NCBI RefSeq assembly: GCF_943192905.1
Contig: NZ_CALPCC010000004.1
Location: 1 to 64,000 of the forward strand
Length of the DNA: 64,000 bases
Direction: 5' to 3'
Source: Adlercreutzia murintestinalis
Lineage (GTDB): Bacteria > Actinomycetota > Coriobacteriia > Coriobacteriales > Eggerthellaceae
Of this stretch, positions 61,176-64,000 are shown in pieces. Below the pieces are notes generated by a model that saw only the letters and a list, made by a program, of their open reading frames with translations, searched no databases and had not been told where the DNA came from. A program made the position numbers and the translations under genes. The first letter of the stretch is position 1. Each line of letters starts with the position of its first letter.

Positions 61176-61280
61176 GTGATGCGTCTGCGGTCGTTCAGGC
61201 GCATCATTGACGCCCATGGCTGCGACGGTAGCTACGTTCCAAGTGATGTATTTGGGGCAGCTCAGGTGCATCATTGACGC
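61176..61280. repeat. Two 38-bp direct repeats after atpC
   Basis: GTGATG...TCAGG(C/T)GCATCATTGACGC occurs at 61176-61213 and 61243-61280, period 67, with about 30 of 38 matches. Confidence 0.75.
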
Positions 61281-61337
61281 GGTGCAGGGCGTGCTTGAGG
61301 GCGCGCTGCACATCGCGAAGAGTTTTGAGCCTGTTTT

Positions 61338-61376
61338 AAAGGGGCGCTTGCGGAATGCGGGCGTCCCTTTCATTTC
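61338..61376 (+). terminator. atp operon terminator
   Basis: AAAGGGGCGC (61338-61347) pairs with GCGTCCCTTT (61361-61370) with one mismatch, followed by CATTTC. Confidence 0.65.
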
Positions 61377-61404
61377 GGCTGATGGATTCTCGAAAAGTCA
61401 GACC

Positions 61405-61612
61405 ATCCTTTCTTTCTGCTCCCTTCTTTCTGTCCTTTTTCCTTCTTCCCCTCCCTATCCATCCATCTACCGACCTATCTATCTGTCTCCCCCGCATCCT
61501 CTCTCTTCCCTTCTTTTCCCCTCCGTTTCTTTTTTCTCATTCCCTCTCTTTCCCCTTTTTCTCGTTCCCGTACCTCTTTTTTTCTTTCTCGTCCCCTGAT
61601 CCCCCTGTTTTT
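61405..61612. other. Polypyrimidine tract of about 200 bp
   Basis: The + strand is almost all C and T, with isolated purines, mostly runs of TTTCC, CCCTT and TATC. It holds no plausible gene and is unlike anything else in the window. Such strands can form triplex or slipped structures. Confidence 0.85.
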
Positions 61613-61625
61613 AGCAAATTTCGCT

Positions 61626-61787
61626 TCTTTTTGGGAATTTCAGCCGCTAATGCGAGTCGCAACTCAACTTTTTTGCGACACGCGATTTGCTGCTGTAGTA
61701 TTTTCCCTGTTCAGGAGCTTGAACGTTTTTGAGTCATGACAAAAACAGAGCGCTCGACTCGCATTAGCGGCTGAAATTCCCAAAAAG
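61626..61787. repeat. 33-bp perfect inverted repeat element
   Basis: Left arm 61626-61658 and right arm 61755-61787 are exact complements, separated by 96 bp. The inner part has further short complements (ACTCAA/TTGAGT, GTTTTTG/CAAAAAC). As RNA it would fold to a very stable hairpin; as DNA it resembles a miniature inverted-repeat element. No clear target duplication was seen. Confidence 0.9.
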
Positions 61788-62131
61788 AGGGGTGAAAAAG
61801 CCAAAAAAGTGCTGAAAATGCTACTAGAACCAGAAGCGTTGAAAACTAGGAGTGCTAAAGGCTGGGCTATCAGCTGATCTCTGATAACGCGAACTAGAAG
61901 CGCTGAGAGGCAGGAGGGGCAAAGAAGCGGGAGTACCAAAGACTCGGAAGTCCAAAGAGTTGGAAGTGCTAAAGTGAGTGACTTTGCCATCCCAAAGAGC
62001 CAAAGTATCATGAAGAATGAGCTTGGCATCCCAGAGATCTAGAAATACCGGAGTGTGCGACGTTAACATGGGCGGCTCTGACAGAACTGGAAGCTTCGAA
62101 GAGTCAGAGGCCCTCAAAAAGCCAGGGAACT
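61788..62131. other. Purine-rich non-coding stretch
   Basis: The + strand is rich in A and G (AAAG, GAAG and GGAGG runs), the mirror of the tract left of the inverted repeat. Open frames crossing it have odd composition and no recognisable protein, so it is left as non-coding. Confidence 0.6.
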
Positions 62132-62203
62132 AAGGAGCCAAGAAGCCAAGGAGCCAAGAAGCCAAGGAGCCAAGAAGCCAAGGAGCTAAGGAGCTAAGGA
62201 GCC
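62132..62203. repeat. Nine tandem octamers AAG(G/A)AGC(C/T)
   Basis: Exactly 72 bp: three 16-bp double units AAGGAGCCAAGAAGCC, then AAGGAGCT twice and AAGGAGCC once. Each AAGGAG resembles an SD, but no start follows at the right distance. Confidence 0.92.
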
Positions 62204-62311
62204 CAGCGTAATGACTGAGGGCAATCGATAGGATCAACGGCAGTGCGAAAGGTCGCAAGAAAGAGCCAATGCGACCAAAAGGTGAATCGTGAATTGTCAG
62301 GGGAGAAGATC

Positions 62312-62713
62312 ATGGAAAAGCACTATCTGCTTTCAGGTGAGGCAATAGAACAACTCATCGATTGGGAATACAACGCCGGGTGCATCGCGAGCGATCGGAT
62401 TACGGTTGATGGCTGCAAGGTCGGCTACTTTTCGCGCGAAGAACCGCTTGCGAATATGCCCGATAGCGGATGGCGCTTCTGGTCGGGTGATGAATCCGAC
62501 GAGTATGCAAGCGATGTGGGTAATTTCACCGTGTTCAATACGAATACGATTTGCAATTATGATCGCGAGATCATTCCTTTTCTGGAGGCGCCGTGTGGGT
62601 GTGAATTCGTGCGTGACGAGACGATCGTTGCACATTTTGCGCCTGACAATGAGCTTGCATTCGCGTGGTTAGTGGAGACCAACCCCGATCTTCTCGCGCG
62701 CGTGGGCGAGTAA
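62312..62713 (+). CDS. DUF2185-like protein
   Basis: 133 residues from ATG 62312 behind AGGGGAG; the longer in-frame start lacks an SD. VGYFSREEPLANMPDSGWRFWSGDESDEY near 37-65, followed by NTNTICNYDREIIPFLEAP, resembles DUF2185 (Imm33-type) proteins, some of which are immunity proteins of polymorphic toxins; others are stand-alone. No toxin gene is adjacent. The GC content is visibly lower than upstream, consistent with acquisition. Confidence 0.7.
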   Translation: MEKHYLLSGEAIEQLIDWEYNAGCIASDRITVDGCKVGYFSREEPLANMPDSGWRFWSGDESDEYASDVGNFTVFNTNTICNYDREIIPFLEAPCGCEFVRDETIVAHFAPDNELAFAWLVETNPDLLARVGE

Positions 62714-62969: not shown

Positions 62970-64000
62970 ATGCGTACTTTACGTGCACCCAAACGGGTCT
63001 TCTTGGGCGTGCTCGCGTTGTCATTGGCGTGCACTCTCACTCCTATCGCACCCTCATACGCAGCAGAAACGAACGAAACGCCTCTTGCGAGTGGCGTCAA
63101 GAATGCCGTTATCGCTGAGGCGTCGCAAGCCGACCAAAGCGCAGCGCAAACGGACGGCAACGCATCGGCAGCTGATGCGTCCGCAGGCGATAGCGCGTCC
63201 AGAGCGGTCTCTGCGGCTGACCAAGCTACCGCTAGCACACAGCCCAGCGCTGGCGAATCTGCTGGCGCAGGCACCGGTGAAGCCGAGGGCGCTCCCGCGT
63301 CGGCGGCAACGGCCAGCAACACATCGGCTAGCGCGGCTCCGATTGAGATCATCTCGGGCCAGGTATCGCTTGAGGATGCCGCTGCCGCCCGCACGTTGAT
63401 CCAGCAAAACGGCCTCACGTTCATCGACAACACCGACGGCACCGCCACCATGGTGGGCTGGAGCGGCAGCGCCCCACAGGGCGAGCTGAGCATCCCTGCC
63501 CAGGTCAACGGCCTTGCCGTAACCAACATTGACTTTCTGGCTCAGGTACCGCTTGTCACGGACGACCTGGACCTCAGCGATGCTGCCCGCGCCGTTGCCG
63601 AGAGCAACGCCGTGGCAGCCGCCATGCAGGCACCGGCTGTTACGCGCCTGAGCATTCCGGCCAGCGTTGCCACCATCAACACTGCCAGCTTCGCGGCATT
63701 CCCGGGGCTCGTTGCCATTGAGGTAGCGGCCGACAATCAAATCTATTCAAGCTACAACGGCATGCTCTTCGACGAGCAGCTCTCTCACCTCCACCTCGTT
63801 CCGGAGGCTATGGAGGGCGTTGCCGTGCTCCCTGCGTCTTTGGCCACTGTCCCTGCTTGCGTAATCTCCCGTTGCACAAAGCTTTTTGGCCTGGACATCC
63901 CAACAGGGGGCGCGGCTGACGCAGCCTTCGCAGTCCGGAACGGTATTCTGTATGCCAAGAATCTGACACCCTCTGGGACGCCCGATGGCACCCTGACGTT
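62970..64000 (+). CDS. Secreted repeat (BspA-like, LRR_5) surface protein, 5' part
   Basis: Open from ATG 62970 to the window edge (343 codons visible). Residues 1-31 form a signal peptide (basic start, then a hydrophobic core, ending SYAAE). About 35-130 is an Ala/Ser/Gly/Asp-rich linker. From about 145 come BspA-type units such as GELSIPAQVNGLAVTNI and VTRLSIPASVATINTASFAAFPGLVAIEV. Such proteins mediate adhesion or host binding in gut bacteria. The anchor lies beyond the window. Confidence 0.85.
   Translation, partial: MRTLRAPKRVFLGVLALSLACTLTPIAPSYAAETNETPLASGVKNAVIAEASQADQSAAQTDGNASAADASAGDSASRAVSAADQATASTQPSAGESAGAGTGEAEGAPASAATASNTSASAAPIEIISGQVSLEDAAAARTLIQQNGLTFIDNTDGTATMVGWSGSAPQGELSIPAQVNGLAVTNIDFLAQVPLVTDDLDLSDAARAVAESNAVAAAMQAPAVTRLSIPASVATINTASFAAFPGLVAIEVAADNQIYSSYNGMLFDEQLSHLHLVPEAMEGVAVLPASLATVPACVISRCTKLFGLDIPTGGAADAAFAVRNGILYAKNLTPSGTPDGTLT

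What the first reader, a model, noticed from the sequence alone, without database searches (positions are those of the whole stretch)
61400..62205. Mirror-image pyrimidine/purine region centred on a 33-bp inverted repeat
About 200 bp of polypyrimidine, then a perfect 33-bp inverted repeat with a 96-bp spacer, then about 400 bp of purine-rich DNA ending in nine octamers. The whole 800 bp is symmetric in composition about the repeat. It could be a structured non-coding RNA, a miniature mobile element that landed in a strand-asymmetric site, or a replication/recombination feature.
Basis: seen in the sequence. Interest (0 to 1): 0.75.

Follow-up and report, generated by a model that had tools for sequence, protein, structure and literature searches.

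The report
Dispersed palindromic DNA element, Eggerthellaceae
The feature is one of eight copies of a short palindromic DNA element, made of two mirror-image arms at fixed distances from a conserved central word, that has spread through the non-coding DNA of this bacterium and has diverged relatives across its family; it looks like an undescribed kind of small mobile or protein-bound repeat rather than a one-off oddity.

Summary
The perfect inverted repeat (34 bp arms, 95 bp spacer; 61626-61659 / 61755-61788) sits between a unique polypyrimidine tract (88% Y) and purine-rich DNA (66%) that includes nine octamers. It is not single-copy. The same genome has eight copies, all intergenic, each built of three conserved blocks: two inverted arms (95% identical between copies) and a central TTTTCCCWGTTCAG (90%). 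The DNA between the blocks is only 52% identical, yet the left-arm-to-centre distance is exactly 48 nt in all eight. Congeners lack the element at four loci; at the three with both flanking genes kept they have short spacers (134-170 bp versus 0.4-1.2 kb). Other Eggerthellaceae, including Enteroscipio rubneri, carry diverged relatives: same centre, inverted arms of different sequence, similar spacing. Flanks of the copies are rich in tandem repeats whose purine-rich strand points outward, so the mirror composition is an extreme case of a property of these loci. Best reading: a non-autonomous, MITE-like palindromic element acting at DNA level through a length-constrained three-site complex. No target-site duplication, partner transposase or consistent RNA structure was found, so mobility and function are inferred. 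No description was found in the few literature searches made.

The parts
61320..61376 (+). atpC-downstream terminator-like segment, shared with congener G001; left limit of the gained region
   Evidence: GTTTTGAGCCTGTTTTAA.GGGGCG...CCTTTCAT is present downstream of atpC in G001
61401..61610 (+). polypyrimidine left flank (purine-rich strand runs outward)
   Evidence: 88.1% pyrimidine, unique in the window; 82% outward purine over 61376-61625
61626..61659 (+). left arm; 25-nt core TGGGAATTTCAGCCGCTAATGCGAG (61632-61656)
   Evidence: 100% complementary to the right arm; conserved in 8 genomic copies
61657..61704 (+). left spacer, exactly 48 nt in all 8 copies while its sequence diverges (counted from the end of the arm core to the central CCC)
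61701..61715 (+). central asymmetric block TTTTCCCTGTTCAGG, conserved in copies of this genome and across Eggerthellaceae genera
61715..61757 (+). right spacer, 43-44 or 54 nt in the 8 copies
61755..61788 (+). right arm (reverse complement of the left arm)
61769..61818 (+). period-21 degenerate repetition of the arm sequence running outward into the right flank
   Evidence: Tandem Repeats Finder, score 58
61789..62293 (+). purine-rich right flank with degenerate tandem repeats (periods 16-17, 21, 8)
   Evidence: 66% purine; tandem score z = 19.6 against shuffles
62132..62203 (+). nine octamers, AAGRAGCY

Best explanation
The 163-bp core is a copy of a dispersed, non-coding palindromic element that works at DNA level and behaves like a non-autonomous mobile element (MITE-like). 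Shown: three blocks are conserved between copies, two inverted arms and one asymmetric central site, held at fixed distances by spacers that are otherwise free to change; copies sit at positions where the element is absent in congeners. Inferred: a protein complex (a transposase or recombinase supplied in trans on the two arms, a host factor or regulator at the centre) assembles across the three sites, which explains the fixed lengths; outward duplication of arm-like units with later decay builds the tandem-repeat, purine-outward flanks that give the mirror-image composition.
For: Eight copies in the genome: seven of 162-174 bp and one diverged. In the seven, arms 94-96%, centre 90%, spacers 52% identical. 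Left spacer exactly 48 nt in all eight, right spacer 43-44 or 54. Three loci with both neighbours syntenic in a congener lack the element there: gaps of 142, 134 and 170 bp against about 1181, 412 and 1040 bp here; the atpC locus lacks it in two congeners. The same centre inside inverted arms occurs in other genera, in excess of control centres in the same loci (score >= 15 in 8/90 sites versus 16/2790, p = 3e-7). Some arms look related between genera. IS1249-family insertion sequences of relatives carry CCCTGTTCA in their 5' leader. Flanks: 13 of 16 more than 50% purine outward, mean 0.576, p = 0.004; p = 0.006 without the window copy; tandem-repeat scores 8-53 (median 21) against 6-16 (median 8) in seven other ORF-free spans.
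Against: No target-site duplication at any own copy or at the other-genus inverted-repeat elements, whereas IS1249 copies in relatives show 8-bp duplications. No transposon with these arms and no solitary arm in the genome, which is 91% complete. No hit to plasmids, phages or viral contigs. Ends are not sharp: similarity fades outward over about 25 bp. In one other genome (G005) different copies have different arm sequences, which one sequence-specific arm-binding protein would not explain. Relatives could have lost the element instead of this lineage gaining it.
Confidence: 0.5

Rival explanations
1. A site-specific DNA-inversion or DNA-looping site: arms are recombinase or architectural-protein sites and the central block is an asymmetric switch or enhancer site, as in recombinase-controlled invertible segments.
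For: Fixed arm-centre distances, with right-spacer classes 10-11 bp apart. The flank arrays of copies C7 (right side) and C16 (left side) are homologous (71% over 179 bp, E = 6e-24) although they lie on opposite sides of the centre, as if the centre had flipped in one of them.
Against: The 10-11 bp difference could be one old indel. The C7/C16 arrangement could be two independent placements. No shared gene context at the eight loci. No recombinase linked or tested.
Confidence: 0.22
2. A structured non-coding RNA: long stem closed by the arms with the central motif exposed in the loop.
For: Very stable predicted stem. Arm pairing exceeds column shuffles (92.4% paired, 8 pairs with changes on both sides). 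Arms stay inverted in other genera although their sequence changes.
Against: The stretch between the arms folds like shuffled sequence in four copies (z -1.8 to 0). Copies C1a and C25 have uncompensated arm mismatches. Spacers keep length but not sequence. No terminator-like site, and promoter matches at chance level. No Rfam family at gathering score; weak hits are mostly miRNA-precursor models that reward long hairpins. Two transposon ends under one transposase would give the same covariation.
Confidence: 0.15
3. A decayed palindrome kept perfect only by arm-to-arm template switching or gene conversion, inside a repeat-rich intergenic region without function.
For: Tandem-repeat-rich, enlarged intergenic DNA at these loci. 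Arm sequences differ between copies in another genome while staying inverted.
Against: Does not explain the conserved centre, the exact 48-nt spacer in eight copies, or the same arm sequence at eight loci.
Confidence: 0.1

Closest known systems
Correia repeat enclosed elements / NEMIS of Neisseria (from general knowledge, not compared here)
   Same: About 100-160 bp, intergenic, multi-copy, long terminal inverted repeats, conserved internal host-factor site
   Different: Different terminal sequence, no TA or other duplication found here, far fewer copies, and here flanked by outward tandem repeats
MITEs derived from insertion sequences
   Same: Short, non-coding, terminal inverted repeats, dispersed, species-specific copies
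   Different: No target-site duplication, no full-length partner with the same ends found, central block more conserved between genera than the arms
IS1249 family (IS256 group) insertion sequences of Eggerthellaceae
   Same: CCCTGTTCA in the 5' leader of several copies in relatives; A-rich sequences near the ends
   Different: IS1249 ends differ (GGCATATAGGCAGAAAAGTGTGTAAG, GGGTTAATTCTCAAAAGGTGTGTC), give 8-bp duplications and flank a transposase gene
REP/BIME palindromic repeats (from general knowledge)
   Same: Paired inverted intergenic repeats
   Different: Arms are 33-34 bp, not short imperfect hairpins with a GTAG-type foot; asymmetric conserved centre
Invertible DNA segments controlled by site-specific recombinases
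   Same: Two inverted sites at a fixed distance with an internal control site
   Different: No recombinase or switched gene identified; inversion not observed

Membership tests
MITE | short, non-coding, multi-copy, dispersed | tested here: met
   8 copies, 158-174 bp, intergenic
MITE | terminal inverted repeats | tested here: met
   25-34 bp arms, about 95% conserved between seven copies
MITE | target-site duplication | tested here: not met
   none at own copies or at copies in other genera
MITE | related autonomous element with the same ends | tested here: inconclusive
   no other arm in the genome, but the assembly is 91% complete in 55 contigs
MITE | empty sites in relatives | tested here: met
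   three syntenic spacers without the element; exact breakpoints not resolvable
IS1249 derivative | IS1249-type ends and 8-bp duplication | tested here: not met
   arms unlike IS1249 ends, no duplication; only the central word is shared
structured ncRNA | conserved structure beyond the closing arms | tested here: not met
   interior folds like shuffles in four copies
structured ncRNA | transcription | not testable with these tools
   no expression data
structured ncRNA | match to a known RNA family | tested here: not met
   no Rfam match at gathering score
invertible segment | both orientations present in a population | not testable with these tools
   needs reads or strains; only an indirect hint from C7/C16 flanks
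REP/BIME | GTAG/GGAG-type foot and a RAYT transposase | not tested
   arms show no such foot by eye; RAYT gene not searched

The most novel reading that the evidence does not exclude
A family-wide class of DNA control sites in Eggerthellaceae: two inverted arms and one asymmetric centre held at fixed, possibly helically phased distances, used by a dedicated protein complex to invert, loop or move DNA, with arms that duplicate outward and seed the strand-asymmetric repeat islands around it.
Probability: 0.25. Interest if true: 0.72.

Novelty: new variant of a known kind. Interest (0 to 1): 0.5.

Why it matters
If right, it defines a palindromic element family in Eggerthellaceae, for which the searches made here found no published description. 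A spacer that keeps its exact length but not its sequence points to a DNA-protein complex and can be tested directly. It would also explain why some intergenic regions in this genome grow into long strand-asymmetric repeat islands.

Tried and rejected
Known RNA family: no match at gathering score. Copies outside the species by DNA similarity: none in 60 relatives, phages or plasmids, viral contigs, or by exact arm pattern in the genome collection. Motif enrichment by itself was set aside as proof because many TTYCCCTGTTC hits are coding (Phe-Ser/Pro-Leu-Phe); only sites with symmetric inverted arms were kept, tested against other centres in the same loci. The arm-plus-centre pattern in the genome collection gave 23 hits, nearly all scattered over unrelated phyla, as chance would give; one was Enteroscipio rubneri, the same locus as G028. 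The idea that the element is simply an IS1249 end was dropped because ends and duplications differ. Helical phasing in other genera is inconclusive because the inner arm limits are fuzzy. Arm relatedness between genera is only moderately supported (p 0.003-0.03 per pair, not corrected for many pairs). In alignment A3 copy C14 was placed in the reverse orientation; this lowers the eight-copy identities and slightly affects the pair counts. Literature: two searches for the central word gave only unrelated papers; the Eggerthella lenta inversion preprint PMC13174815 reports different inverted repeats.

Full report
OBSERVATION. The inverted repeat is exact: 34-nt arms at 61626-61659 and 61755-61788, 95 nt apart. 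To its left lies a polypyrimidine tract (61401-61610, 88.1% Y; the most pyrimidine-rich 200 bp of the window, with 66.5% the highest value outside the locus). To its right is DNA with 65.9% purine that ends in nine octamers. The region lies between the atpC terminator and a gene with an Imm33 domain.

COPIES IN THE GENOME. A search of the window's own genome (2.04 Mb, 55 contigs, 91% complete) found seven full copies. A pattern search and a covariance model found an eighth, diverged one (C14). No arm occurs outside these copies (one arm of C14 was that search's only three-mismatch hit). All are intergenic, next to unrelated genes.

ANATOMY. Among the seven closer copies the arm cores are 94-96% identical, a central 15-mer TTTTCCCWGTTCAGG 90%, and the spacers 52%. 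The distance from left arm core to central CCC is exactly 48 nt in all eight, including C14 once it is read in the matching orientation; the right spacer is 43-44 or 54 nt. With this much sequence divergence, indels would be expected, so the length is probably constrained. The two right-spacer classes differ by about one DNA turn, but this may be a single old event.

ABSENCE IN RELATIVES. BLAST found no copy in 60 relatives. Where both neighbouring genes are syntenic, congeners have spacers of 142 bp (G001, asnB locus), 134 bp (G001, serA locus) and 170 bp (G002, C1b locus), against about 1181, 412 and 1040 bp here. Downstream of atpC, G001 keeps the terminator but has no element, and the next gene differs in both congeners. 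Gain in this lineage is the simple reading; loss elsewhere is not excluded.

RELATIVES IN OTHER GENERA. The covariance model gave one clear hit in G005 with different arms but the same centre. Following the centre led to further elements in several genera of the family, with inverted arms about 50 nt on either side: L137, L196, L176, L136, L177, L126, L132, L108, L043, L109. Against control centres in the same loci the excess of strong inverted repeats is 8/90 versus 16/2790 (p = 3e-7). G061 has two tandem arms on each side; G018 and G075 also have additional arms. L137 is the locus found in Enteroscipio rubneri (Eggerthellaceae). Some arms appear related between genera, and G005 carries several arm types.

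FLANKS. The strand that points away from the element is purine-rich in 13 of 16 flanks (mean 0.576, p = 0.004; without the window copy 0.554, p = 0.006). The direction was chosen after seeing the window copy, so the second figure is the fair one. Flanks score high for tandem repetition (8-53, median 21) against 6-16 (median 8) for seven other ORF-free spans (a small control with mostly shorter spans). In the window copy a period-21 repetition continues the arm sequence outward (61769-61818). C7 right and C16 left share a homologous array. The mirror-image composition is therefore an extreme example of what these loci tend to look like; that the arrays are decayed arm duplicates is inference.

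RNA OR DNA. The arms pair well and show paired changes, but so would the two ends of a transposon. The interior does not fold better than shuffles, C1a and C25 carry uncompensated mismatches, and there are no terminator-like sites. A DNA-level role is favoured.

LINK TO INSERTION SEQUENCES. In congener G002 the motif lies near the left end of a degenerate IS1249-type element with an 8-bp duplication; in G007 a full IS1249 (NF033544, 424 bits) carries CCCTGTTCA in its leader and also shows 8-bp duplications. The palindromic elements have other ends and no duplication, so the shared word is a lead, not a proof of descent.

VERDICT. A dispersed palindromic element of a MITE-like kind with an unusual, length-constrained three-block design. 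Dispersal, block conservation and spacing are shown; transposition, protein binding and the origin of the flanks are inferred.

Noticed in passing
window 62243-62713: The gene right of the element encodes an Imm33-domain protein (PF09951, E 3e-30); a protein with a signal-peptide-like start begins at 62970 and has no family match.
   Followed up: partly
L065 1464-2156; L094-L102 (congener G002): Multi-copy degenerate IS1249-like elements with a long hairpin directly before a truncated zinc-ribbon transposase; L065 shows an 8-bp duplication TTAACTTT.
   Followed up: partly
G000 C1:149299-149463 (L216): A single IS1249-type transposase fragment lies at the end of a contig in the window's own genome.
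   Followed up: no
L010 (C7 right flank) and L011 (C16 left flank): A degenerate array of about 28-30 bp units (like AAGAAAGATCAACATGCGCGCAGATAGCCC) is shared by two loci on opposite sides of the element.
   Followed up: partly
L132 (G061), motif region: Two tandem arm copies on each side of the centre, spaced 29 bp, close to a tRNA-like sequence.
   Followed up: partly
G000 C18:45757-45803, C7:93145-93191, C30:16918-16985: Small dispersed repeats shared with the right flank of copy C1b, unrelated to the arms.
   Followed up: no
window 61176-61213 and 61243-61280: Two 38-nt direct repeats (79% identical) just after atpC.
   Followed up: no
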